From an uncultured Spirochaetales bacterium (lineage in GTDB: Bacteria > Spirochaetota > Spirochaetia > Sphaerochaetales > Sphaerochaetaceae), in assembly GCA_949288415.1 (NCBI GenBank), contig CASEKE010000051.1:1-64000 (forward strand): a stretch of DNA of 64,000 bases, written 5' to 3'. This document shows, in pieces, positions 7,784 through 25,784 of this stretch. Made by a program: the position numbers and the translations under genes. The notes beneath the pieces are model-generated. The model was not told the origin of the DNA. It saw only the letters and a list, made by a program, of their open reading frames with translations, and did not search any database. Each line of letters begins with the position of its first letter. The first letter of the stretch is position 1.

Positions 7784-8089
7784 GTGAGTATTCGACAGGG
7801 ATTACAAGCTAGCAGCTGTCAATCTGATAGTCGAGAAGATGATATGGATGCCAAGGAAGTGTCGGGACTTCTCGACATCCACTACAACGCCCTTTACCGA
7901 TGGGTCTCCGAGTACGAGAAGTATGGCCAGTCGGCCTTCCCCGGTAACGGGGTCAAGATATACGACCACCAGGCGGAGATCTGGTGGTTGGAGAAGAAGA
8001 ACCGTGAACTTGAGGATGAGCTGGAACTTTTAAAACAGTTCCGGGTCTTCAGACACGAAAAAACGGTAAGATACCAGTACCTTAAATGA
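7784..8089 (+). pseudogene. IS3-family transposase OrfA, disrupted by two compensating frameshifts
   Basis: Helix-turn-helix OrfA. The frame from the GTG at 7784 reads DMDAKEVSGLLDIHYNALY and then the Glu/Lys-rich leucine-zipper tail typical of IS3 OrfA. Between about 7791 and 7836 the conserved N-terminus is instead readable in the next frame (RDYKLAAVNLIVEK), so one indel near 7790 and one near 7838 appear to have shifted this stretch. It stops at TGA 8087-8089; the same frame then continues directly into OrfB sequence. It should not be functional. Confidence 0.8.
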
Positions 8090-8449: not shown

Positions 8450-8485
8450 AAAAAAAACCCCAAATGTTGGAGACAACATTTGGGG
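8450..8485 (-). terminator. Rho-independent terminator of the gltX-glyQS-tyrS operon
   Basis: A perfect 12-bp stem (CCCCAAATGTTG / CAACATTTGGGG) with a 4-nt loop is followed on the minus strand by eight T residues. It lies 41 nt after the tyrS stop, between tyrS and the IS remnant. Confidence 0.93.
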
Positions 8486-8526: not shown

Positions 8527-9774
8527 CTATTTAATCACGATGCGGAAGAATCTCTTCTTTCCTGCCTTGAGAATGAACTCACCGTTCTCGTCGGCCATGT
8601 CTGCAGTGATCATGGTTTTCGGGTCGGTTATCTTGGTTCCATTGACCTCTGCGCCACCCTGTGTGACGATCCTTCTGGACTCGCCGTTGGAAGCACACAG
8701 ACCGGAAAGCGTGAAGAGATTGAGAATTCCCATTCCCTTTCCCTCGAATTCCGTGCGGGAGACTTCTTTGGATGGCATGCCCTCCTTATCAGCGCCGACG
8801 CTGAAGAGAGCCTTGGCGGCAGCCAGAGCCTTGTCGGCCTCTTCCTGTCCATGGATGATCCGCGTTACCTCGTAGGCAAGCTTTTCCTTGGCTTCGTTGA
8901 TGTTTCTTGCCGGATCGGCATACTCGGCGATCTCGTCAAGATCCATGAACGTAAACAGTTTCATGAACCTGATCGTATCCTCGTCGGTCACGTTTCTCCA
9001 ATACTGATAGAAGTCGTATGGAGAGTACATGTCCGCAGCAAGGAACACTGCGCCCTTCTCGCTCTTGCCCATCTTCTTGCCGTCGCTCCTCATTATGAGG
9101 TTGAACGTGAGTCCGAAGCACTCGGGGCCTCCCATCCTCTGGATGAGATCGATTCCGGCCACGATGTTTCCCCACTGGTCGGCACCGCCTATCTGCATAC
9201 GGCAACCTGTCCTGTCGTAAAGAACCTTGAAGTCGTAGCTCTGCAGAAGCTGGTAGTTGAACTCTATGAACGAAAGCCCTCTTTCCAGTCTCTGCTTCAC
9301 ACCTTCGAAAGTCAGCATGCGGTTTACGGAGAAATACTTTCCGACATCCCTGAGAAACTGGATGTAATTCAAGTCGACGAGCCAGTCGGCGTTGTTCATG
9401 AGTCTGGCCCTGCCGAGACCTGGCTTCGGATTTTCGGAGAAGTCGATTACGGATGAAAGCTGATCCTTTATCCTCTCCGCGTTGCTCTTGATCTGCTCGA
9501 CGGAAAGAATCTTCCTCATCTCGGTCTTTCCGGACGGATCCCCGATCAGTCCGGTGCCTCCGCCGACGAGAGCGATCGGGTTATGGCCAGCCTCCTGGAG
9601 ATGGTGCATCGCAAAGAAAGGTACGATGTGACCGATGTGGAGACTGGCACCGGTCGGATCCGTGCCGCAGTAGAATGTAACCTTCTCCTTGTCCATCAGA
9701 TCCGACAGTGCATCGAGGTTCGTGCAGTCCTTGACGAATCCACGGTCGAATAATGTCTGAAGCGCCTTGTTCAT
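8527..9774 (-). CDS. tyrS: Tyrosyl-tRNA synthetase
   Basis: Class I synthetase charging tRNA-Tyr, 415 residues. The HIGH box is seen as ASLHIGHIVPF near residue 43, preceded by YCGTDPTG, and the KMSKS loop as KKMGKSEKG near residue 230. The C-terminal 70 residues form an S4 RNA-binding domain (ESRRIVTQGGAEVNG). It is the last gene of a three-synthetase operon, one base after the glyQS stop, with a strong terminator downstream. Confidence 0.97.
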   Translation of the reverse strand: MNKALQTLFDRGFVKDCTNLDALSDLMDKEKVTFYCGTDPTGASLHIGHIVPFFAMHHLQEAGHNPIALVGGGTGLIGDPSGKTEMRKILSVEQIKSNAERIKDQLSSVIDFSENPKPGLGRARLMNNADWLVDLNYIQFLRDVGKYFSVNRMLTFEGVKQRLERGLSFIEFNYQLLQSYDFKVLYDRTGCRMQIGGADQWGNIVAGIDLIQRMGGPECFGLTFNLIMRSDGKKMGKSEKGAVFLAADMYSPYDFYQYWRNVTDEDTIRFMKLFTFMDLDEIAEYADPARNINEAKEKLAYEVTRIIHGQEEADKALAAAKALFSVGADKEGMPSKEVSRTEFEGKGMGILNLFTLSGLCASNGESRRIVTQGGAEVNGTKITDPKTMITADMADENGEFILKAGKKRFFRIVIK

Positions 9775-9775
9775 C

Positions 9776-11104
9776 TCAGATCCTCACATATTCCTTGTTC
9801 TTCGCATGGATGAACTCGACGAGCTTGTCTACAGATACTCTCTCCTGAGCCATGCTGTCGCGGAAACGGACGGTGACTGTGTCATCCTGAAGAGTCTGGT
9901 AGTCGACGGTGACGCAGTACGGAGTTCCGATCTCGTCCATTCTCCTGTATCTTCTTCCGACGGCCCCGCTCTGGTCGAAGAACGTCTTGAAATCGGCACG
10001 TAGTCCGTGCTCGAGCTTCTGTGCATACTCGCCGAGTCCGTCCTTTTTCACCAGCGGAAGAACTGCCACCATGACCGGTGCGATGAGCGGATGGAAATGG
10101 AGGACGGTCCTGACATCTCCTTCCGGGGTCGGCTCCTCGTCGTATGCGTCAGAAAGCGCCATGAGGACGTTTCTCGTGAGTCCTGCGGATGTCTCGACGA
10201 CATACGGAATATATCTCTCGTTGGTCTCGGGATCAAGGTACGTCATGTCCTTGCCGCTGAACTTCTGATGCTGGGTCAGGTCGTAGTCGGTCCTTGAGTG
10301 GACACCTTCGAGCTCCTGCCATCCCATCGGGAAGAGGAACTGGATGTCGTAGGCATCCTTTGCATAGAAAGCAAGCTCGTCCGGTCCATGCTGATGCCAT
10401 CTAAGATGATCTGCGCGGATTCCCATCTTCTTGTAGTACTCCATTCTCTGCTCTCTCCAGTACGGGAACCACTTCTCGTCTGTTCCGGGCTTGCAGAAGA
10501 ACTGCATCTCCATCTGCTCGAACTCGCAGGAACGGAAGATGAAATTTTTCGTCGTGATCTCGTTTCTGAAGCTCTTTCCGACCTGTGCGATTCCGAATGG
10601 AAGCTTGACTCTCGAGCTCTGCAGGACGTTCTTGAAATCGACGTATATTCCCTGAGCCGTCTCCGGGCGAAGATAGACGACGGACGCGGAATCGGAATTA
10701 GGTCCGATGTGCGTCTGGAACATCAGGTTGAAGTTCCTCGGCTCAGTGAAGCTGTCCTTGTTGCCGCAGACGGGGCAAGGCTTGGAAAGGTCGATCTGAT
10801 CGGCGCGGAAGCGACTCTTACAGACCTTGCAGTCTACCATCGGATCGGTAAAGTTCGAGACGTGTCCCGATGCCTCCCAAACGCGGGGATGCATGAGGAT
10901 GGACGCGTCGAGGCCGACGATGTTGTCGTGCAGCTGCGTCATCTCCTTCCACCAGAAATCCCTGATGTTGTTCTTGAGCTCGACTCCGAGCGGACCGTAG
11001 TCATATGCTCCGTTGAGACCTCCGTAGATCTCGCTCGACTGGAAAATGAAACCTCTTCTTCTGCAGAGGGAAACGATCTTGTCCATTGTAACTGTATCAG
11101 CCAT
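9776..11104 (-). CDS. glyQS: Glycyl-tRNA synthetase, dimeric alpha2 type
   Basis: Class II synthetase of the single-chain (archaeal/eukaryal-like) type, 442 residues; distinct from the split GlyQ/GlyS enzyme. Motifs: RRGFIFQSSEIYGG at the start, FMNLMFQTH-like FNLMFQTHIGP, RPETAQGIYVDFKNV, FRNEITT with motif 2, and a zinc-binding CKVCKSRF...CPVCG insertion around residues 93-118. The C-terminal anticodon-binding domain runs from about residue 335. It overlaps the end of gltX by 8 nt, so translation is probably coupled. Confidence 0.96.
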   Translation of the reverse strand: MADTVTMDKIVSLCRRRGFIFQSSEIYGGLNGAYDYGPLGVELKNNIRDFWWKEMTQLHDNIVGLDASILMHPRVWEASGHVSNFTDPMVDCKVCKSRFRADQIDLSKPCPVCGNKDSFTEPRNFNLMFQTHIGPNSDSASVVYLRPETAQGIYVDFKNVLQSSRVKLPFGIAQVGKSFRNEITTKNFIFRSCEFEQMEMQFFCKPGTDEKWFPYWREQRMEYYKKMGIRADHLRWHQHGPDELAFYAKDAYDIQFLFPMGWQELEGVHSRTDYDLTQHQKFSGKDMTYLDPETNERYIPYVVETSAGLTRNVLMALSDAYDEEPTPEGDVRTVLHFHPLIAPVMVAVLPLVKKDGLGEYAQKLEHGLRADFKTFFDQSGAVGRRYRRMDEIGTPYCVTVDYQTLQDDTVTVRFRDSMAQERVSVDKLVEFIHAKNKEYVRI

Positions 11105-12581
11105 GTATTGCCTCCAATATTCCTATGGCTCTCCCGAGCCTTCTTTTTGTCTCGTCCATACCAAGCAGTCTGATGGAATCGAAAAGCGGCAGCGAGACCG
11201 TGGAATTGGTCAGTCCCACCCTGATCGGCTGGAAGACCCCATTGACCTTTATTCCAAGTTCCTTCGAAAGAGCGACAAGCTCCTCCTCTATCTCCTGTTC
11301 CTCCTTTCCTGCTTCGAGACCTGAAATCAATATCTTCGATCCGCGTTCGAGTGCCTTGAAAGTGCTTTCCTCGTCGCTGCCCTTCGCAACATATACCCCG
11401 ACATCCTCGACAGGCTTGTCCTCGAAGAGGAACCTTGAAAGCTCGACGACGTCGGATACGACCTTCATCCTCTCCTTGCATGGCCCAACGAGCTTCATTA
11501 CGAGCGCCTTCTCATCTTCGCTCGGCTCTTTCGAGATGAACCCGGCTTCCTGGAGATAAGGAGTCATCAGGGAAGCAAGACGCTCGTCCTCGCAGGCCCT
11601 TATGTAGTAGCCGTTGAACCAATCGAGCTTCTTGTAGTCGAATATACCGGGCTTCTTGTGGATGTTTTCCATGCGGAAGCACTTCTCGAGCTCCTGCTTG
11701 CTGAATATCTCAGTGGATCCGTCGAGCGACCATCCGACAAGCGTAACGTAGTTGATTATGGCCTCCGGAAGATAGCCCTTTGTCCTGAAATCCCTGACGC
11801 TCGTCGAACCGTGCCTCTTGCTCAGTTTCTGGCCGTCCTTGCCCATGACCATCGGAAGGTGGCAATAGACGGGCGGTTCCCAGCCGAAGGCCTTGTAGAG
11901 AAGGATATGGAGCGGTCCGGAAGGAATCCACTCCTGAGCCCTCATGATATGAGTAACTCCCATCAGATGGTCGTCGATCACGTTCGCAAGATGATATGTC
12001 GGAAATCCGTCACTCTTGAGAAGGATAGGATCGGGCGAAACATCCCTGTTGCGACGGGTGATATCACCCATAAGGACATCGTGGAATGTCGTCGAGCCTT
12101 CGGTCGGGACCCTGAGCCTTATTACCGGCTTTATTCCCTGTCTCTCGTATTCCGCACGCTCCTCGTCAGTGAGATTCGCACAGTGCCTATCGTATCCCTG
12201 GTACTCGCTCTTTGATGCGATCTGTTCCTGTCTGACCTTCTCAAGGCGTTCCGGGGAACAATAGCAATAATAGGCCTTTCCGTCCTTGACAAGCTGTTCG
12301 GCATACTTCCTGTAAAGCTCGAACCTCTCGCTCTGTATATACGGGCCAAACGGACCGCCGACGACAGGACCCTCGTCCCATTCTATGCCGAGCCAGTCGA
12401 GGGTATCGTAAAGATCCTGCAAGGACTCGTCCGAATACCTTTCCCGGTCTGTGTCCTCGACGCGGAGTATGAACTTTCCGCCATTGGCTTTGGCGAAGAA
12501 GTAGTTGTACAGCGCGGTTCTGACTCCACCGATGTGCTGCAGCCCGGTCGGAGACGGGGCGTAACGAACACGAACTTCCAT
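11097..12581 (-). CDS. gltX: Glutamyl-tRNA synthetase
   Basis: Charges tRNA-Glu; first gene of the synthetase operon; 494 residues from the chosen start. The ATG at 12581 is preferred over the upstream TTG/ATG options because AGGAG lies 8-10 nt before it and the protein then begins with MEVRVRYAPSPTG, the normal N-terminus. The HIGH-type motif is GLQHIGGVRTALYNY and the KMSKS motif is GQKLSKRHG near residue 245. The C-terminal anticodon domain is alpha-helical and complete. The enzyme may be discriminating or not; this cannot be decided here. Confidence 0.96.
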   Translation of the reverse strand: MEVRVRYAPSPTGLQHIGGVRTALYNYFFAKANGGKFILRVEDTDRERYSDESLQDLYDTLDWLGIEWDEGPVVGGPFGPYIQSERFELYRKYAEQLVKDGKAYYCYCSPERLEKVRQEQIASKSEYQGYDRHCANLTDEERAEYERQGIKPVIRLRVPTEGSTTFHDVLMGDITRRNRDVSPDPILLKSDGFPTYHLANVIDDHLMGVTHIMRAQEWIPSGPLHILLYKAFGWEPPVYCHLPMVMGKDGQKLSKRHGSTSVRDFRTKGYLPEAIINYVTLVGWSLDGSTEIFSKQELEKCFRMENIHKKPGIFDYKKLDWFNGYYIRACEDERLASLMTPYLQEAGFISKEPSEDEKALVMKLVGPCKERMKVVSDVVELSRFLFEDKPVEDVGVYVAKGSDEESTFKALERGSKILISGLEAGKEEQEIEEELVALSKELGIKVNGVFQPIRVGLTNSTVSLPLFDSIRLLGMDETKRRLGRAIGILEAIHG

Positions 12582-12606
12582 TGTTATCTTTCTCCTGAAT
12601 ATGATG

Positions 12607-12660
12607 GTGTCCGCTGGTGGCGGACACATAAATACTAAAGTGTTTTCTTTTTTAAGACAA
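12607..12660 (-). promoter_or_regulatory. Candidate promoter and 5'-terminal hairpin of the synthetase operon
   Basis: On the minus strand TTGTCT (12655-12660) and TAGTAT (12632-12637) are 17 nt apart, giving a start near 12625. The transcript would begin with the perfect 8-bp hairpin GTGTCCGC/GCGGACAC (12607-12627), which has no T-run and is therefore more likely a 5' stabiliser or leader structure than a terminator. Confidence 0.45.
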
Positions 12661-13497
12661 CAGGCAGAGGAAGTCGACGCACTCCTTAATCGTTATTTCC
12701 TCGGCTTTTTCATCCTTGTCGTAGAAGAGCATGTGCGTGCCGCCGGGTACGACGACCTTCTTCGTGAAGGAAAGCCTTTTTCGGTCGAAGTAGCCAAGCA
12801 CATCCACAGGTACAAGAGGATCATCTTTTCCCATTATGGCCAGCGTCGGGCAATCGAGATCCGGAATGCGGTTTCTCGCCTCCCGCTCCATATCCAGGAA
12901 CGAGGAAAACTGTCTAGGATAGAAATGCGACCAATACTGCACTCCTAGTTCCAGGTCATCCTTTGGAGCTCCGTCGTAATGCAGGTGGTAATCGGGATCG
13001 CTATGCCACTCCACGTCCAGAACCTTGTCGAGTGCGCAGAGCGTCTTGAGCGCGACAGAAGAAGGCCTCTGCCTGAGCTTCAGCGCAGGCGCGACGAGCT
13101 CTATGCACTTGAGTTCATGGCGAAGCGAAAGAAGAATCGCGATCAGGGCACCCATGGAGTGTCCGAGCACGCTTACCTTGCCGTATCTGCCGATCATGAC
13201 CATTAGCGCATTCTCGCTCGCTCCGATCCAGTCCGCGGACGAAGTGTTTCTGAAGTCGCTCGAGCTGGTGCCCATTCCCGGCAGTCGAGGGACGTACACG
13301 TCGAATCCGCGCGAATACACGGCCTTTGCCACGGAACACAGCTCCCCAGGATATCCGGCATAGCCATGCAGCATAAGGACCGCTTCCCGTGCGCCCTCTT
13401 CATGTATGAGCTTGAACGGCTGTGCTGCATCGATTATGTCTTCCTTATCACGATAACAGCCGGCAAGTATCAGTTTCTCGTCGATCGGGTATCTCAC
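12652..13497 (-). CDS. Alpha/beta hydrolase, carboxylesterase or monoglyceride-lipase type
   Basis: Cytoplasmic serine hydrolase of 281 residues with the Est30-like fold. The oxyanion segment is MLHGYAGYPGEL, the nucleophile elbow is LGHSMGALIA, the acid is Asp in MGKDDPLVP, and the base His is in PGGTHMLFY. The GTG start is supported by AAGGAGG 7 nt upstream and shares four bases with the stop of the regulator gene (GTGA), so the two are translationally coupled. It closes the five-gene operon that starts at 16955. Natural substrate unknown; short-chain esters or monoacylglycerols are typical of relatives. Confidence 0.85.
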   Translation of the reverse strand: MRYPIDEKLILAGCYRDKEDIIDAAQPFKLIHEEGAREAVLMLHGYAGYPGELCSVAKAVYSRGFDVYVPRLPGMGTSSSDFRNTSSADWIGASENALMVMIGRYGKVSVLGHSMGALIAILLSLRHELKCIELVAPALKLRQRPSSVALKTLCALDKVLDVEWHSDPDYHLHYDGAPKDDLELGVQYWSHFYPRQFSSFLDMEREARNRIPDLDCPTLAIMGKDDPLVPVDVLGYFDRKRLSFTKKVVVPGGTHMLFYDKDEKAEEITIKECVDFLCLLS

Positions 13498-14393
13498 CAG
13501 GATGCCTCCTTGAGCAGATTCAGCAGATCGATCCTGCAGCGTACGCCAGTCTTGGTGAAGGCGTTCGATATGTGATTGTTCACCGTGTTGACACTTATGT
13601 TGAGCTCCGATGCGATCTCCTTGTTCGTCAATCCCTGCTTTATCAGCTCTATGACCTCCATTTCGCGGTCGGTTATGTGATACTTCTCAACGATGGACCG
13701 TCTTACGTCCTCACGATCGATTTCGACGTCCTTCTCCTCGTTAAGTTGCTTGTTGATCGCGATGAAGAGGAACACAAGGACCATCACAAAATAACAGAAG
13801 GCGACAATGGGAAGAGCCAGAGATGAAAAAGATACTGCAAAAAGCGGTACGACGAGAAACGGAATCATCGAAATGGAGACAATCTCTATCGTAAGGGCCG
13901 CAGCTCGGGAATCCTTTTCTGCTATGTCCATTCTCGCCTGCGCCATGACGACCACCGTGTAGACAATCACCGGAAGAAAGCAGACGAATTTCATTTTTTC
14001 CGCAAGGTCGCTGCGGGTGACCATCGAAACTATCGCGGAAGCGACGAATGCGGAGGCAAGGACGATGGACACCAGTTTCTCCCTCGTCTGGAAAGGACGC
14101 GCTATGACCCAGTTGATGAAAATCGGGATGAACACGAAAAGGAAAGCGACGTCGCAGATGTATATAGCCTCCCAGACTATCGAGAAGACTAGGCTAGCTG
14201 TCCCCGTCAGCAACAGAGGCGAAAACGATACCAGAGCGTAAGAGAAGACAAGTCCGAGCACGGTGGCCATGAAGACTATCAGGAACTTCGACCATCTGTA
14301 CTCGGCCCTTCGCCCCCAGACAATGGCGAGGGCGAGATCCATTGATGATATCGATATCGCCAGCACGCTGAACAATATCGTGAATGCCTGCAT
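13494..14393 (-). CDS. Membrane-anchored LuxR-family regulator
   Basis: 299 residues: about seven hydrophobic segments in residues 1-215, then a linker and a LuxR-type helix-turn-helix at residues 240-299 (ITDREMEVIELIKQG, LTNKEIASELNISVNTVNNH). It is probably an inner-membrane one-component regulator; the membrane part may sense a small molecule or envelope state. Such 7-TM LuxR proteins are common in spirochaetes. It begins one base after the RloB stop and overlaps the hydrolase start. Its targets are unknown; its own operon is an obvious candidate. Confidence 0.85.
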   Translation of the reverse strand: MQAFTILFSVLAISISSMDLALAIVWGRRAEYRWSKFLIVFMATVLGLVFSYALVSFSPLLLTGTASLVFSIVWEAIYICDVAFLFVFIPIFINWVIARPFQTREKLVSIVLASAFVASAIVSMVTRSDLAEKMKFVCFLPVIVYTVVVMAQARMDIAEKDSRAAALTIEIVSISMIPFLVVPLFAVSFSSLALPIVAFCYFVMVLVFLFIAINKQLNEEKDVEIDREDVRRSIVEKYHITDREMEVIELIKQGLTNKEIASELNISVNTVNNHISNAFTKTGVRCRIDLLNLLKEASW

Positions 14394-14394
14394 C

Positions 14395-15027
14395 TTACTT
14401 GAAGGCCTTCTGGTTATGCGACATGTCGGCCTTTCCGCAGACTTCCTGGATCATCTCGTCGAATTCCGGCATCGTAGTGGCCTCCAGTCCGTGGGAATAG
14501 CTTATCGCATTGTTGTAGTTTCTTGCATTGATATCGGCCGTTGCATGTCTGCCGAACAGCTGCAGATGCAGATTGATTCCCTTGGTCAGAAGAAATTCGG
14601 GGGTTATGTCTCCTCCCACTGCTCCCTTGACCTTTGCCCTTATGCCTTCCGCATCTCCGACATACGTGTTGAGAGCGCCGAGGTGCAGCAGGAACCAGAG
14701 CTCGAAACAGGGATCGAACCAGCATAGTCCGATTCTCTTCTTTTCAGCATACTCCCTGAGAACCTTGACCTCCTCGACATCGGTACCGACTTCGTCGAAA
14801 CCGAAAAGAGCCCATACTTTCTCGTACTTGCCGAGGTTCTTCCTCTTTGCGGTGATGTCTATGAGTTCCTTGAGCGAAAGGCCGTCGCGCCCTGCATACT
14901 CGACCGTCAGGTTCATGTAGCGGCAATCCTTCCTCATCTGGGAAAAGTATGCGCTCTCGGCCTTGGTCGCCGTCACCAGAAGGATGGTTCCCTTGGCCTC
15001 TGTGGTATTCTTCTTGCGCTTTGTCAT
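14395..15027 (-). CDS. RloB family protein with altered acidic residues
   Basis: 210 residues. The family signature is clear at residues 106-114 (PCFELWFLLH), with the preceding aromatic segment and a C-terminal Ala/Arg-rich helix (ARNYNNAISYSHGLEA). RloB proteins are partners of AAA ATPases in AbiL-type and related phage-defence loci and are thought to have a TOPRIM-like fold. From memory of the family, the first motif reads VEG..TE and the second FDRDE; here they read ILLVTATKAES (Ala20 at the Glu position) and ALFGFDE (Gly76 in place of the first Asp, Asp78 kept). GGAGGAG precedes the ATG. It follows the ATPase gene after one base. It may be catalytically altered or inactive. Confidence 0.8.
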   Translation of the reverse strand: MTKRKKNTTEAKGTILLVTATKAESAYFSQMRKDCRYMNLTVEYAGRDGLSLKELIDITAKRKNLGKYEKVWALFGFDEVGTDVEEVKVLREYAEKKRIGLCWFDPCFELWFLLHLGALNTYVGDAEGIRAKVKGAVGGDITPEFLLTKGINLHLQLFGRHATADINARNYNNAISYSHGLEATTMPEFDEMIQEVCGKADMSHNQKAFK

Positions 15028-15028
15028 C

Positions 15029-16306
15029 TTACTCCTCCTCCTTTACGAAAGCCTCATCCTCGACGGGAGTTCCGTCATGCAAGAAATAGAAATCGCTGGT
15101 GACAGGAAGCGCACCGAATGCACCCTGCATGTAGCGGGCGCTGTAGCTTGCCTTGCTTCTGCCCTTGAAGTCGGAAAGGCTGTAGAACACAGTCGAGCTC
15201 TCAGCATCCTTCTGGGCGAACCAGACGGCATCCTTTCTAAGAAGATTCTCCCTGAGCAGGGAAGGATTGCAGTCGACTACGAGCATCTGGCTCTGCTTGT
15301 TGCAGTCCTCGAATATCTCAACGAGATGGCAAAGGAGATCCGGATGCAGAAGCTGGCCGAAATCGTCGATCAGCAGAACCTTCTCTTTCACGAAGCTTTC
15401 AAAGAATGCGACGCCTATCGCTACGATTCTCCTGAGGGAAAGGGATTCCATCAGGAAGCTCTGGCTGTAGCCATCGACCTTCTTGTCGTTCACATATACG
15501 TGCGTGAAGACGACGATCTTGCTTCCGTCCTCCTTCGTCTTCGTACCGACTCTTCTGATGTCGGTGATGTCGAGAGCCCAGAGGTAGTTCACCAGCATGT
15601 CGCCCCATCCGGGATGTTTCTCCAGCATAGCCGCAACGAACTGCTCCGCCTGGGTTCCGACGCCCATCGGAAGGATGTTCAGCGTGTTCACGAACCATGA
15701 ATAGAGCTCTCCCGATGTGAGTCCGCCGGTCAGAGCGGAAGCCTGGAGGAAACTCTTTGTCTCGGAAAGATTCTTGGCCGCCCTCTTCTTCTCACCTCTG
15801 TAGAGCTTGCCGAAGCGATACTTGTAACCCTCTCCTTCGGCCTTGCGCTCAAACATGATCTTCTTCGAACCGTTCACGACGTAGTAGAGGCTCTCCTCGA
15901 AGATTTTTTCCCTGTTGGCCACCAGTGTATAGCGGGCGATGACGGTCGGATTGTTCTCCAAATCGTCGTCCTTTCCCTTTGCAAGGAGCACGTCGATCGA
16001 GATTTCCGCAGGGGTAGCCTTGTCTATTCCGTAAGCGAACACCGTTCCGGAAAGGGACGAGGAAAGCGGATTAGCAACATCCTCGGGGCTCGTCACGATC
16101 CTCTTGAGGACCTCGAGCGCTCTTACGAACGAGCTTTTTCCTGCACCGTTCGGACCGATGACCGCACTGGTCTTTATAACGTTCATCCTGTCATTGACAC
16201 AAATGACCTTGTTCTTGTCCAGGCGATTGTCCTTGACAGCTTCGAAGCTGATAGTCTGCTTCGACTTCACTGATTTGAAGTTTGCGATACTCATGCTTAA
16301 AAGCAT
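15029..16306 (-). CDS. AAA family ATPase of the RloA/AbiLi type, with altered catalytic motifs
   Basis: 425-residue SMC/OLD-like ATPase partner of RloB. The N-terminus is typical (MSIANFKSVKSKQTISF), Walker A is GPNGAGKSS at residues 51-59, and the C-terminal half carries LLRKDAVWFAQKD and YSLSDFKGR as in the RloA/AAA_15 family. Residues normally needed for hydrolysis look changed: the Walker B acid pair reads LLIDDFGQLLHP (Asp315 where Glu is expected), the switch histidine region reads VVDCNPSLL (Cys346 where TTH or TSH is usual), and the signature region reads MESLSLRR instead of ESxGT. AAGGAGG lies 5 nt before the ATG and overlaps the stop of the PHP gene. The frame is intact and codon use is like its neighbours. 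Confidence 0.85.
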   Translation of the reverse strand: MLLSMSIANFKSVKSKQTISFEAVKDNRLDKNKVICVNDRMNVIKTSAVIGPNGAGKSSFVRALEVLKRIVTSPEDVANPLSSSLSGTVFAYGIDKATPAEISIDVLLAKGKDDDLENNPTVIARYTLVANREKIFEESLYYVVNGSKKIMFERKAEGEGYKYRFGKLYRGEKKRAAKNLSETKSFLQASALTGGLTSGELYSWFVNTLNILPMGVGTQAEQFVAAMLEKHPGWGDMLVNYLWALDITDIRRVGTKTKEDGSKIVVFTHVYVNDKKVDGYSQSFLMESLSLRRIVAIGVAFFESFVKEKVLLIDDFGQLLHPDLLCHLVEIFEDCNKQSQMLVVDCNPSLLRENLLRKDAVWFAQKDAESSTVFYSLSDFKGRSKASYSARYMQGAFGALPVTSDFYFLHDGTPVEDEAFVKEEE

Positions 16307-16316
16307 TCTGTCCTCC

Positions 16317-16955
16317 TTAGCGAGTAAGCCCGTAACGGCTCATCTTCTTCATTATATCAGGCCATCTTCCGAACGCCTTCGACAGAGCGATTATATCCTC
16401 CTTTCTGCCATGGCAGTCGCTTGCGAAAAGATCGACGATCCCGCTTGCGACATAGCGTTCGGCTTTTCCCCCTTTCTCCAGGGCCTTGCCATTGACCTGG
16501 AAAAGGCATCCAAGTGCCTTCATTTCGTCTATGACTGCGCTGTCCGGCTCAAGCCAGCTGTAGCGCTCGACATGGGCGATTATCGGAATAAAAGGCTTGA
16601 GAGATGCGATCTTCCCCAGCATGTCCATAGGAGCATACGTGGTGGAGAACTCGATGAGTGCGAATTCACCGAAGATGGGAAGGACTCTGGGGGTTATGTA
16701 GTCGTTCACGTATACCTCGCTTCCGATTGCGGTCATAATGCCGACACGGTCCGCCATTTCCTTAGCTCTGGCGTATGCTTCCCTTATTCCGAGCACGTCG
16801 GTCTTGACGTGCGGGTTATATAGGTGAGGTGTAAAGCATACTCCATCAAGTCCGCAATCAAGATATACGCGAAAGATCTCCTCAAGACCTTCCCACTTCG
16901 CCTTGCTGTCGTCGATTCCCGGCAGCAGATGCGAATGCACATCAAACAAGCCCAT
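16317..16955 (-). CDS. PHP-family protein tyrosine phosphatase, CpsB/YwqE type
   Basis: 212-residue metal-dependent phosphatase of the polymerase-and-histidinol-phosphatase superfamily. All expected metal ligands are present: DVHSHLLPGIDD (His7, His9), TPH (His44), GSE (Glu80), AHVERY (His128, Glu130), and ASDCHG (Asp180, His182). Relatives dephosphorylate bacterial tyrosine kinases controlling capsule or exopolysaccharide. No kinase or polysaccharide gene is nearby. It is the first gene of the five-gene operon, 10 nt before the ATPase gene. There is no Shine-Dalgarno sequence; a TATAAT box ends 6 nt before the ATG, so the mRNA is probably leaderless. Confidence 0.85.
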   Translation of the reverse strand: MGLFDVHSHLLPGIDDSKAKWEGLEEIFRVYLDCGLDGVCFTPHLYNPHVKTDVLGIREAYARAKEMADRVGIMTAIGSEVYVNDYITPRVLPIFGEFALIEFSTTYAPMDMLGKIASLKPFIPIIAHVERYSWLEPDSAVIDEMKALGCLFQVNGKALEKGGKAERYVASGIVDLFASDCHGRKEDIIALSKAFGRWPDIMKKMSRYGLTR

Positions 16956-16961
16956 GGAAGA

Positions 16962-16991
16962 ATTATAAGCAGAAAAAAAACAAAAAGTAAA
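16962..16991 (-). promoter_or_regulatory. Promoter giving a leaderless mRNA for the PHP-RloA-RloB operon
   Basis: On the minus strand TTTACT and a perfect TATAAT are 18 nt apart; TATAAT (16962-16967) ends 6 nt before the ATG at 16955, so transcription should begin at or within a base or two of the start codon. Confidence 0.7.
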
Positions 16992-17082: not shown

Positions 17083-17137
17083 CCGATTTTGTTGTATCAT
17101 AGATTAAAATGAGGATATCAATCAAAAAAAAATTAAA

Positions 17138-17167
17138 AAAACTACCTAACATTTGTCAGGTAGTTTT
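17138..17167 (-). terminator. Rho-independent terminator of the lipoprotein gene
   Basis: A 10-bp stem (AAAACTACCT / AGGTAGTTTT) with a 10-nt loop is followed on the minus strand by a long T-rich run. It lies 45 nt after the stop of the lipoprotein gene at 17213. Confidence 0.9.
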
Positions 17168-17212
17168 CTATTTCAATGGCGTGGAGCATAGATTTCCGCA
17201 ATGCAAGGTACG

Positions 17213-23011: not shown

Positions 23012-23029
23012 CGGAACAAACTTGTTCCG
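23012..23029. promoter_or_regulatory. Perfect 18-bp palindrome upstream of the MATE pair
   Basis: CGGAACAA-AC-TTGTTCCG lies about 30 bp before the -10-like CATAAT (23058-23063) of the first MATE gene. Operators of MarR- or TetR-type repressors of drug pumps often look like this; the regulator is not encoded next to it. Confidence 0.6.
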
Positions 23030-23070
23030 CCATATGGAGAAAAAAAACTTTTTGGTCCATAATGGCAATC

Positions 23071-24429
23071 ATGGCAAGAACCAAGATCGAAAAGAGCGAG
23101 CTTCTTTTCACAAACCGGTACATCTTCAACCTCACCCTGCCGCTTCTGATAGAGACGATACTGAACGTGACCATCGGCATGGCCGACACGATTATGGTCT
23201 CAAGCGCGGGCGAGGCCTCCGTCTCGGGGGTTTCGCTTGTCGATTCGCTGGCGAACCTTTTCATATTCATGCTGTCGGCATTCGCCACAGGCGGCGCGGT
23301 GGTAGCGACCCAGTACATGGGCCGACAGGACAAAGAGCATGCCTCGTCCTCGGCAAAACAGCTCATACAGCTTGCATTCATCTCGGCGCTTGCCTGCTCA
23401 CTCATACTTCTGCTGGGACAGGATTTCATGATGGATCTTGTCTTCGGTTCGATCGAGCCGGATGTAGATGCGGCGGCATCGGGATATTTCCTCCCGATAG
23501 TCGCGTCTCTGCCGTTCCTTGCGGTCCTCAACAGCGCGAATGCGATATCGCGAAGCATGGGCAGAAGCCGGATCACCATGGTGGTCGCTCTGATCATGAA
23601 CACGATAAACATATCGGGCAATGCACTTTTCATATACGTATTCAGGCTCGGAGCCACAGGTGCGGGAATTGCCAGCCTGATATCGAGGATCATCGCCTCT
23701 GCGATAATGCTTACGGTACTGTACAACCGGAATCTTCCGATCCACATATCGAAGGTGTTCAAGCCTTCGCTGGAGGCCCCGATGGTCAGGAGGATACTTC
23801 GCATCGCCCTTCCATCCGGAGTCGAGAACAGCATTTTCCAGATAGGCAAGATCCTCACCATGAGCATCATAACCTCCATCGGGACCGCTGCCATAACGGC
23901 CAATGCGGTCATGAACAGCATCGCAACCGTCACCAACATTCCGGGAACTGCAATCAACATGGCGGCCGTGACGATCGTCGGACAATGCTGCGGAGCCGGC
24001 AAATACGACCAGGCGGAGTACTATGCGAAAAAACTTCTTGGCGTGACATATCTGATGCTTCTCGCCATAAGCGTGCTGATCTTCGTCTTCATGGAACCGA
24101 TAATAGGACTGTACAACCTCGGGCCCGAATCGCATGCGCTCACAAGGGAAGTTGTGGTGATGATTCTCGTCCAAACAGCGATCTTCTGGCCGCCGGCATT
24201 CAGTATTCCGAACTACCTCAGGGCTGCCGGCGACGTCAAATTTCCGATGTACGTATCGATTGCCAGCATGTGGATATTCCGCGTCACGCTCGCAAGGATC
24301 CTCGGTCTGAACTTCTCGATGGGTCTCATGGGAGTCTGCTGGGCGATGTACATAGACTGGTACGCCAGACTGCTGTTCTTCATACCTCGCTTCAAATCCG
24401 GCCGATGGAAGACGAAGAGGGTCATCTGA
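23071..24429 (+). CDS. MATE family efflux protein (first of a tandem pair)
   Basis: 452-residue inner-membrane exporter with twelve predicted helices in two MatE repeats. Conserved segments: NVTIGMADTIMVSSAGEASVSGVSLVDS (residues 30-57), GGAVVATQYMGRQD, and the second-repeat counterpart VTIVGQCCGAGKYDQAEYYAKK. Such proteins exchange Na+ or H+ for cationic drugs or metabolites. The ATG at 23071 is preferred over that at 23062 because a CATAAT box ends 7 nt before it and neither start has a Shine-Dalgarno sequence. The second MATE gene follows after 5 nt. Confidence 0.9.
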   Translation: MARTKIEKSELLFTNRYIFNLTLPLLIETILNVTIGMADTIMVSSAGEASVSGVSLVDSLANLFIFMLSAFATGGAVVATQYMGRQDKEHASSSAKQLIQLAFISALACSLILLLGQDFMMDLVFGSIEPDVDAAASGYFLPIVASLPFLAVLNSANAISRSMGRSRITMVVALIMNTINISGNALFIYVFRLGATGAGIASLISRIIASAIMLTVLYNRNLPIHISKVFKPSLEAPMVRRILRIALPSGVENSIFQIGKILTMSIITSIGTAAITANAVMNSIATVTNIPGTAINMAAVTIVGQCCGAGKYDQAEYYAKKLLGVTYLMLLAISVLIFVFMEPIIGLYNLGPESHALTREVVVMILVQTAIFWPPAFSIPNYLRAAGDVKFPMYVSIASMWIFRVTLARILGLNFSMGLMGVCWAMYIDWYARLLFFIPRFKSGRWKTKRVI

Positions 24430-24434
24430 TCGGC

Positions 24435-25784
24435 ATGTCGAATGGAAATTCCGGACTGCTGTTCGACGGCAGATATCTCAGGAGCCTCATAATTCCTCTT
24501 GTTGCCGAGACCCTTCTGGGCGTAACGATCGGCATGGCCGACACGATCATGGTCTCGAGCGCAGGGGAAGCCGCCGTCTCGGGAGTTTCTCTCGTAGACT
24601 CGATCGGATCGCTGTACGTGTTTCTGGTCACGGCATTCGCCACTGGAGGTGCGGTAGTATGCTCGCAATACCTTGGGCGGAAGGATTACGGGAATGCCTC
24701 ATCGGCCGCAAGGCAGCTCGTCATGCTCTCTTTCTTTGTATTCCTGGCTCTCGGCATCCTGATGCTGGCATTCAGGGATGTCATCGTAGGAATGCTCTTC
24801 GGCACAGTGGATGACAATGTGCTTGAAAGCGCGAACGACTACTTCGTGCCGATCATGGTCTCTCTTCCTCTCCTGTCACTTTCGTCCTCAGCCACGGCGA
24901 TACTCAGGACGATGGGGAAAACCAGGATCAGTCTTCTTGCCAGCATTCTTTCCAACGCGGTCAACGTGGCAGGGAATGCCGTTTTCATTTACGGTTTCTC
25001 CATGGGCTCGTTCGGGGCCGGTCTTGCAAGCCTGATCGGACGGGCGACAGGTGCGATACTTCTCATGGCCGTCGTCACGCGTGGAATGCACGAAGTCAGC
25101 GTGGCCGGACTTTTTTCCACCAAGCCCGACAGGAGAATGATATGGCGCATCGTGCGGATCGCCCTTCCCTCCGGAATAGAGAACAGCATATTCCACATCG
25201 GAAAAATCCTGATGACGAGTACGATAAGCAGGATCGGTACCGGTGCAATCGCAGCCTATGCCGTCTCAACTAACCTAGGCAACTTCTCGAATCTCGGTGC
25301 TCAGGCTATCGGCCTGGCATCCATAACGGTGATCGGACAGTGCTGCGGAGCCGGCAGATACGATCAAGCCGAATACTATTCGCGCAAGCTTCTTCTGGCG
25401 GCATATGTGTTGACGGCCTTCAGCTGTGCAGTCCTTTCCGCGGCGATCTCACCGCTTGTAGGACTGTACAACCTTTCCCCGGAAGGCAGAAATCTGGCCA
25501 TCGAGGTATCTCTTCTGCTGTTCGTCCAGACGGCTATCTTCTGGCCGATGGCATTCACGTTGCCGAATTTCCTAAGGGCAGCCGGAGACGTCAAATTCAC
25601 GATGATCGTATCGATTGCAAGCATGTGGATATTCCGAGTCACGCTTGCGGAAATACTCGGAGTGGCTCTGGGCTTCGGTCTTGCCGGAGTATATTGGGCC
25701 ATGTTCGTGGACTGGTACTGCCGTATCGTATTCTTCGCAATACGCTTTCGAAAGGGGAAATGGAAAAGTATGCCCGTGATCTGA
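24435..25784 (+). CDS. MATE family efflux protein (second of a tandem pair)
   Basis: 449 residues, with the same topology as its neighbour and near-identical blocks (GMADTIMVSSAGEAAVSGVS, VIGQCCGAGRYDQAEYYSRK, FLRAAGDVKFTMIVSIASMW), so the two arose by tandem duplication. The ATG at 24435 is 5 nt after the first stop; an in-frame ATG at 24405 inside the first gene is an alternative. No strong ribosome site is visible, so translation is probably coupled. Paralogues may have different substrates or could assemble together; the latter is speculation. Confidence 0.9.
   Translation: MSNGNSGLLFDGRYLRSLIIPLVAETLLGVTIGMADTIMVSSAGEAAVSGVSLVDSIGSLYVFLVTAFATGGAVVCSQYLGRKDYGNASSAARQLVMLSFFVFLALGILMLAFRDVIVGMLFGTVDDNVLESANDYFVPIMVSLPLLSLSSSATAILRTMGKTRISLLASILSNAVNVAGNAVFIYGFSMGSFGAGLASLIGRATGAILLMAVVTRGMHEVSVAGLFSTKPDRRMIWRIVRIALPSGIENSIFHIGKILMTSTISRIGTGAIAAYAVSTNLGNFSNLGAQAIGLASITVIGQCCGAGRYDQAEYYSRKLLLAAYVLTAFSCAVLSAAISPLVGLYNLSPEGRNLAIEVSLLLFVQTAIFWPMAFTLPNFLRAAGDVKFTMIVSIASMWIFRVTLAEILGVALGFGLAGVYWAMFVDWYCRIVFFAIRFRKGKWKSMPVI

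What the first reader, a model, noticed from the sequence alone, without database searches (positions are those of the whole stretch)
15029..16306. RloA-type ATPase keeps its P-loop but appears to have lost hydrolysis residues
Walker A is intact (residues 51-58) but the Walker B acid pair is Asp314-Asp315 instead of Asp-Glu, the switch position reads Cys346 where His is usual, and the ESxGT signature is ESLSL. The frame is intact and long, so selection seems to keep an ATP-binding but slow or non-hydrolysing protein.
Basis: partly seen in the sequence, partly recalled or inferred. Interest (0 to 1): 0.65.

Follow-up and report, generated by a model that had tools for sequence, protein, structure and literature searches.

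The report
Core pair of catalytically dead defence proteins
An anti-phage defence pair (a Rad50-like ATPase and its nuclease partner) appears to have lost the catalytic residues of both proteins, yet almost every species of one bacterial family keeps the two together as ordinary chromosomal genes, which suggests that a defence weapon was turned into a non-cutting housekeeping component.

Summary
Aligned with 43 canonical relatives that sit next to RloB genes, the changes define a clean clade. All 58 orthologues read have Asp for the Walker B Glu (canonical 43/43 Glu), Ser for the signature Gly (43/43 Gly) and Cys for the switch His (40/43 His). The P-loop, Walker B Asp and D-loop His are invariant.

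Its Toprim Glu is absent from 58/58 and the first DxD Asp from 56/58. Clade-specific motifs have appeared elsewhere in it.

The ATPase is present in 87 of 92 genomes of one family, probably Sphaerochaetaceae. It lies in a conserved gene order ending gltX-glyS-tyrS and diverges in step with gltX (Mantel r 0.81). Purifying selection is strong (dN/dS about 0.01-0.04 in the closest pairs). Four genomes of two sister families carry an intermediate form.

Best reading: a domesticated AbiL/RloAB pair, ATP-binding but slow or non-hydrolysing, with a dead nuclease, working as an ATP-gated binding switch. What it binds is unknown. Automatic defence annotation would call it AbiL.

The parts
15029..16306 (-). 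Protein A: AbiLi/RloA-like OLD-type ABC ATPase with degenerate hydrolysis site, 425 aa
   Evidence: AlphaFold2 model pLDDT 91.6, Rad50/SMC-head fold
16133..16156 (-). Intact P-loop GPNGAGKS, residues 51-58
   Evidence: K57 and S58 invariant in 58/58 orthologues
15434..15448 (-). Degenerate signature ESLSL, residues 287-291 (canonical ESxGT)
   Evidence: S290 58/58 vs G 43/43; L291 57/58 vs T 39/43
15362..15367 (-). Walker B Asp314 (kept) and Asp315 (canonical Glu)
   Evidence: D315 58/58 vs E 43/43
15269..15274 (-). Asp345-Cys346 at the switch (H-loop) position (canonical Thr/Ser-His)
   Evidence: C346 58/58 vs H 40, Q 3 of 43; D345 58/58
14395..15027 (-). Protein B: RloB/AbiLii-like Toprim protein with lost metal-A residues, 210 aa
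   Evidence: Pfam RloB 3.5e-13; model pLDDT 93.3; OLD Toprim domains among best fold matches
14968..14970 (-). Ala20, at the position of the Toprim catalytic Glu
   Evidence: Glu 0/58 in clade vs 36/37 canonical
14794..14802 (-). Gly76-Phe-Asp78, at the position of the DxD motif
   Evidence: first Asp 2/58 vs 37/37; second Asp 36/58 vs 37/37
14920..14934 (-). Clade-specific motif RKDCR, residues 32-36 of B
   Evidence: K33, D34, R36 58/58; variable in canonical RloB
14407..14439 (-). Clade-specific C-terminal motif CGKADMSHNQK, residues 197-207 of B
   Evidence: G198 58/58, C197 57/58; mostly gaps in canonical RloB
16317..16955 (-). CpsB/CapC-type PHP phosphatase gene, first gene of the unit
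   Evidence: Pfam CpsB_CapC 1.8e-23; synteny
13494..14393 (-). LuxR-type regulator with hydrophobic N-terminal half
   Evidence: Pfam GerE 3.3e-16; synteny
12652..13497 (-). Alpha/beta hydrolase gene
   Evidence: Pfam Abhydrolase_1 4.8e-18; synteny
11097..12629 (-). gltX-like gene (ORF as listed; true start probably near 12581)
   Evidence: named from the sequence; synteny
9776..11104 (-). glyS-like gene (glycyl-tRNA synthetase)
   Evidence: named from the sequence; synteny
8527..9774 (-). tyrS-like gene (tyrosyl-tRNA synthetase)
   Evidence: named from the sequence; synteny
16962..16991 (-). Promoter-like site TTTACT-18-TATAAT upstream of cpsB
   Evidence: consensus match only
17136..17169 (-). 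Terminator-like hairpin upstream of the unit
8458..8485 (-). Terminator-like hairpin after tyrS

Best explanation
This is a domesticated, catalytically degenerate descendant of an AbiL/RloAB defence pair (an OLD-type ABC ATPase plus a separate Toprim protein). It became fixed before the family (probably Sphaerochaetaceae) radiated and is inherited vertically. Mechanism, mostly inferred: the ATPase still binds Mg-ATP and changes conformation or oligomerises on ATP, but hydrolyses slowly or not at all. The Toprim partner no longer cuts and serves as a binding subunit. The pair thus acts as an ATP-gated binding switch or scaffold in housekeeping physiology rather than as an abortive-infection toxin. 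Shown by sequence: fixed loss of hydrolysis and nuclease residues in the two proteins, retained ATP-binding residues, vertical inheritance, purifying selection. Inferred: ATP binding, lack of catalysis, complex formation, loss of the defence role. Unknown: the ligand. Candidates are RNA or tRNA (linkage to gltX-glyS-tyrS; the related AriB is a tRNase) or envelope regulation (linkage to cpsB).
For: Motif census: D315, S290, C346 58/58 versus E 43/43, G 43/43, H 40/43; P-loop, D314 and H321 kept. One clade with motif columns removed, 100 support. Partner lost the Toprim Glu (0/58) and first DxD Asp (2/58) and gained clade-specific motifs. Present in 36/36 genus genomes and 87/92 family genomes. 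Conserved gene order. Divergence tracks gltX, r 0.81, and B, r 0.92. dN/dS 0.009-0.04 in the closest pairs. In P2 OLD, H-loop and Toprim single mutants abolish killing (PMC7049728); AriB E26A is inactive (PMC12409363); Glu-to-Asp plus altered signature and H-loop mark slow ABC sites (PMC7756269).
Against: No activity was measured. Glu-to-Asp sites can still hydrolyse slowly. [quoted passage not shown] scotoductus OLD hydrolyses ATP, and alanine at Walker B E246 or E247 of Cran1 had no effect. Single metal-A mutants of B. pseudomallei OLD kept cleavage activity. D78 and E109 survive in about half of the B proteins. Five family genomes lack the gene, so it is not universally essential.
Confidence: 0.6

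Rival explanations
1. Remodelled but still active ATPase: D315 acts as the base and the new invariant Asp345-Cys346-Asn-Pro loop replaces the switch His, giving slow but real hydrolysis that drives a new function.
For: D345, N347 and P348 are invariant in 58/58 and not canonical; Glu-to-Asp ABC sites still hydrolyse slowly; Cran1 tolerates Walker B changes.
Against: The signature Gly, Thr and the switch His are all gone together, and the partner's catalytic residues are gone as well.
Confidence: 0.2
2. Immunity or modulator role: the dead pair interferes with active AbiL/RloAB systems that come and go in the same genomes, or senses phage and signals through another effector.
For: Canonical RloB genes occur patchily in the same family; in AAA-RloB pairs the AAA protein can neutralise the toxic partner (PMC10440598).
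Against: The pair is near-universal and syntenic, also in genomes where no canonical RloB was found at the threshold; nothing ties it to defence islands.
Confidence: 0.12
3. Ordinary active AbiL/RloAB defence system with sequence drift.
For: PADLOC AbiLi 6.1e-60 and AbiLii 2.4e-13; two-gene architecture as described for AAA-RloB pairs.
Against: Toprim Glu gone from 58/58 and first DxD Asp from 56/58; hydrolysis residues gone; vertical, syntenic and near-universal.
Confidence: 0.05
4. Decaying relic without function.
For: Loss of catalytic residues; two copies in other genomes carry one in-frame stop.
Against: dN/dS 0.009-0.04 in the closest pairs, invariant P-loop, new invariant motifs, and A more conserved than its neighbours.
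Confidence: 0.03

Closest known systems
AbiL (AbiLi/AbiLii) and RloA/RloB pairs
   Same: Two adjacent genes, OLD-type ATPase then RloB-type Toprim protein; PADLOC and Pfam matches
   Different: Hydrolysis residues of A and metal-A residues of B are lost in the whole clade; vertically inherited core genes instead of patchy defence genes
PARIS (AriA/AriB)
   Same: ATPase and Toprim protein encoded separately; A also matches AriA models (4.4e-14)
   Different: Partner is RloB/AbiLii-like and lacks the Toprim Glu that AriB needs (E26)
Cran1, an OLD family ATPase of Sulfolobales (PMC12796447)
   Same: OLD-family protein conserved in a lineage and used outside antiviral defence
   Different: Cran1 is one fused protein with active ATPase and nickase; here two genes with degenerate sites
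Degenerate nucleotide sites of ABC exporters (TAP, TM287/288)
   Same: Same kind of changes: Walker B Glu to Asp, altered signature, altered H-loop (PMC7756269)
   Different: Those pair one degenerate with one active site; here a homodimer would have only degenerate sites, and the protein is not a transporter

Membership tests
AbiL/RloAB (by descent) | OLD-type ATPase gene next to an RloB/AbiLii gene | tested here: met
   Pfam AAA_21 and RloB; AbiLi 6.1e-60, AbiLii 2.4e-13; adjacency in all loci read
AbiL/RloAB (by descent) | Canonical ATPase motifs: ESxGT, Walker B DE, switch His | tested here: not met
   S290, D315, C346 in 58/58
AbiL/RloAB (by descent) | Toprim Glu and DxD in the RloB partner | tested here: not met
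   Glu 0/58, first Asp 2/58
AbiL/RloAB (by descent) | Patchy, mobile distribution typical of defence genes | tested here: not met
   87/92 family genomes, syntenic, tracks gltX
AbiL/RloAB (by descent) | Phage protection or toxicity | not testable with these tools
   needs expression in a laboratory strain
PARIS | AriB-type effector with active Toprim | tested here: not met
   No AriB-model match at E up to 1 for B, which matches AbiLii; Toprim Glu absent
Degenerate ABC ATPase | P-loop kept; catalytic Glu, signature and switch His altered | tested here: met
Degenerate ABC ATPase | ATP bound but hydrolysed slowly or not | not testable with these tools
   biochemistry needed
OLD-type ATPase fold | Rad50/SMC-like ABC head | tested here: met
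   model pLDDT 91.6; Rad50 Z 21.2, PtuA Z 18
Toprim fold (protein B) | Toprim alpha/beta domain as in OLD C-terminal regions | tested here: inconclusive
   OLD Toprim domains rank 2-5 at Z 6.8-7.5, under the level that excludes a common arrangement; supported by RloB sequence match

The most novel reading that the evidence does not exclude
A tRNA- or RNA-targeting abortive-infection pair was converted, by loss of both catalytic sites, into an ATP-gated RNA or tRNA binding regulator of translation, kept in one transcription unit with three aminoacyl-tRNA synthetase genes as a core function of a whole bacterial family.
Probability: 0.15. Interest if true: 0.85.

Novelty: new variant of a known kind. 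Interest (0 to 1): 0.62.

Why it matters
Defence genes are usually patchy and mobile. Here both proteins of a defence pair have lost catalytic residues in concert and become a near-fixed core feature of a whole bacterial family. It gives an alignable series (canonical relatives, a half-changed form in two sister families, a fully changed clade) for asking how an abortive-infection machine becomes a housekeeping one, and what ATP binding without hydrolysis does in OLD-type ATPases. It also warns that motif-blind defence annotation will report AbiL in these genomes. Complete genomes in the family, with sizes matching cultured Sphaerochaeta globosa, S. pleomorpha and S. coccoides, make it testable.

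Tried and rejected
No organism names were therefore obtained directly, and the family was named only by matching three complete genome sizes to a published table (PMC3726837). A viral-contig scan with the single protein found no relative. PDB sequence search gave mostly P-loop-level matches. AriA/PARIS structures were not among the 50 entries shown, which is no evidence against relationship. Neutral decay was rejected on dN/dS and conservation. A dependence on the cpsB/LuxR/hydrolase neighbours was rejected: in two genomes of one genus (L086, L099) those genes were not found, while A-B remains directly next to gltX. A strict dependence on the synthetase genes is not supported either: in the two f4 genomes (L032, L097) A-B follows a Wzc-like kinase and cpsB, and no gltX was found in the stretch read.

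Full report
Observation. The frame 15029-16306 is an intact 425-codon gene on the minus strand. Pfam assigns AAA_21 (5.7e-15), and the next gene, 14395-15027, RloB (3.5e-13). PADLOC calls the two AbiLi (6.1e-60) and AbiLii (2.4e-13).

Orthologues were collected from same-genus genomes and from a sample of the class. The outgroup was ATPases next to RloB genes across the phylum plus canonical paralogues in the same genomes. In one alignment of 58 orthologues, 4 intermediate proteins and 43 canonical proteins, position 315 is Asp 58/58 versus Glu 43/43. Position 290 is Ser 58/58 versus Gly 43/43. Position 291 is Leu 57/58 versus Thr 39/43. Position 346 is Cys 58/58 versus His 40 and Gln 3 of 43. 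The residues that bind Mg-ATP (G51, G56, K57, S58, D314) are invariant. So is His321, which lies seven residues after the Walker B Asp like the D-loop His of OLD proteins (spacing in P2 OLD). The 43 canonical rows include a few near-duplicates, since three loci were fetched twice. With the motif columns removed, the changed proteins still form one side of a fully supported branch, with a single change of state.

A stepwise series. Four proteins from two other families of the class (L031 and L098 from f3; L032 and L097 from f4) are intermediates. They have Asp315 but keep the signature Gly (ESLG), and have Val at the switch position. The Glu-to-Asp change is therefore shared by stem and clade, the signature changed only in the main clade, and the switch position differs between them.

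The partner is degenerate too. In canonical RloB the Toprim Glu is present in 36/37 and both DxD Asp in 37/37. In the clade the Glu is present in 0/58 (Ala 48), the first Asp in 2/58 (Gly 46), the second in 36/58 and the downstream Glu109 in 30/58 (37/37 canonical). The metal-A ligands of OLD Toprim domains are this Glu and the first DxD Asp (PMC6755086). In AriB the E26A Toprim mutant is inactive (PMC12409363). In P2 OLD, single Toprim or H-loop substitutions abolished killing (PMC7049728). Meanwhile new invariant features appear in the partner: K33, D34 and R36 of RKDCR (58/58) and a C-terminal CG.AD..HNQK motif that is mostly a gap in canonical RloB. Loss at the active site with gain elsewhere argues for new function rather than decay.

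Core and vertical. The pair is found in 36 of 36 genus genomes. In the class sample the ATPase is found in 87 of 92 genomes of the family (my count of the rows). The five without it are four small genomes of 1.2-1.6 Mb from other genera and one 80%-complete genome. Matches below E 1e-100 were seen only in this family and in f3 and f4. The gene order Lp - cpsB - A - B - luxR - abh - gltX - glyS - tyrS is kept, with local losses, across the family's genera. Pairwise divergence of A follows gltX (Mantel r 0.81) and B (r 0.92), with 0 of 2000 permutations as high. dN/dS in the closest pairs is 0.009-0.04 for A and 0.007-0.04 for B (pairs at larger dS are less reliable, and the upper range is 0.26 and 0.42). 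A is more conserved (57-59% mean identity) than its neighbours Cps, LuxR and Abh (38-39%). By contrast, canonical RloB genes are patchy, and none of the operon neighbours was found near five canonical copies from the same genus (L035, L043-L045, L050).

Which family. The session gives no names. Three complete genomes in the family have contigs of 2.227, 3.316 and 3.591 Mb. These match the published 2.23, 3.32 and 3.59 Mb of Sphaerochaeta coccoides, S. globosa and S. pleomorpha (PMC3726837). Locus GC of 50.5, 49.4 and 47.5% is close to the published 50.6, 48.9 and 46.2%. I infer Sphaerochaetaceae (Spirochaetota).

Structure. AlphaFold2 models are confident: A pLDDT 91.6, B 93.3. A matches Rad50/SMC heads (Z about 21) and Septu PtuA (Z 18). 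B's best matches are 2p62 (Z 8.2) and OLD Toprim domains (Z 6.8-7.5), which is suggestive but under the level that excludes a common arrangement.

Transcription unit. Consensus scans place a terminator upstream (17169-17136), a promoter-like site just before cpsB (16991-16962) and a strong terminator after tyrS (8485-8458). The pair is thus probably transcribed with three aminoacyl-tRNA synthetase genes; this was not tested. In one genus (L086, L099) A-B sits directly beside gltX and the other neighbours were not found. In L031 (f3) and in L032 and L097 (f4) the pair lies after a Wzc-like kinase gene (Wzz, GNVR, AAA_31) and cpsB. The only constant companion of A is B.

Mechanism. Retained and lost residues divide cleanly: binding residues kept, hydrolysis and trans-contact residues lost. 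The same combination marks degenerate sites of ABC exporters, where Glu-to-Asp gives very slow hydrolysis (PMC7756269). I therefore favour an ATP-binding, slow or non-hydrolysing switch coupled to a non-cutting Toprim partner. Caution is needed, because OLD-type ATPases tolerate unusual motifs (PMC7049728; Cran1, PMC12796447), and no activity was measured. My own weights: fixed degeneracy, vertical inheritance and purifying selection about 0.9; loss of efficient hydrolysis about 0.75; a dead nuclease about 0.8; a role outside phage defence about 0.7; any named ligand no more than 0.2.

Novelty. Domestication of OLD-type proteins is known (Cran1), and so are degenerate ABC sites. I found no description of a two-protein AbiL/RloAB-type pair that lost both sets of catalytic residues and became a family-wide core feature. 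The literature search was limited to an open-access library and few queries.

Noticed in passing
L031 6121-9419, L032 4945-8101, L097 2876-5974: In three genomes of the sister families f3 and f4 a Wzc-like protein (Wzz, GNVR and AAA_31 domains) lies just upstream of cpsB and the A-B pair, hinting at an ancestral exopolysaccharide context.
   Followed up: partly
window 15269-15274 (-): Asp345 is invariant (58/58) beside Cys346, in place of canonical Thr/Ser, and Cys346 is the only Cys of the ATPase conserved in all 58 orthologues; a redox or alternative catalytic role is possible.
   Followed up: no
window 14395-16306: PADLOC models AbiLi and AbiLii match this degenerate pair strongly, so defence-system surveys may report AbiL in these genomes.
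   Followed up: partly
window 7784-8089 (+): An HTH_Tnp_1 (IS3-type orfA-like) transposase gene lies close to the end of the operon, past the terminator after tyrS.
   Followed up: no
window 23022-25784 (+): A MatE-type transporter gene (23062-24429) is followed by a second similar stretch inside a longer overlapping frame, which looks like a tandem pair.
   Followed up: no
G031:C198 and G382:C34: Two orthologues of the ATPase carry one in-frame stop each; assembly error or local loss was not distinguished.
   Followed up: no
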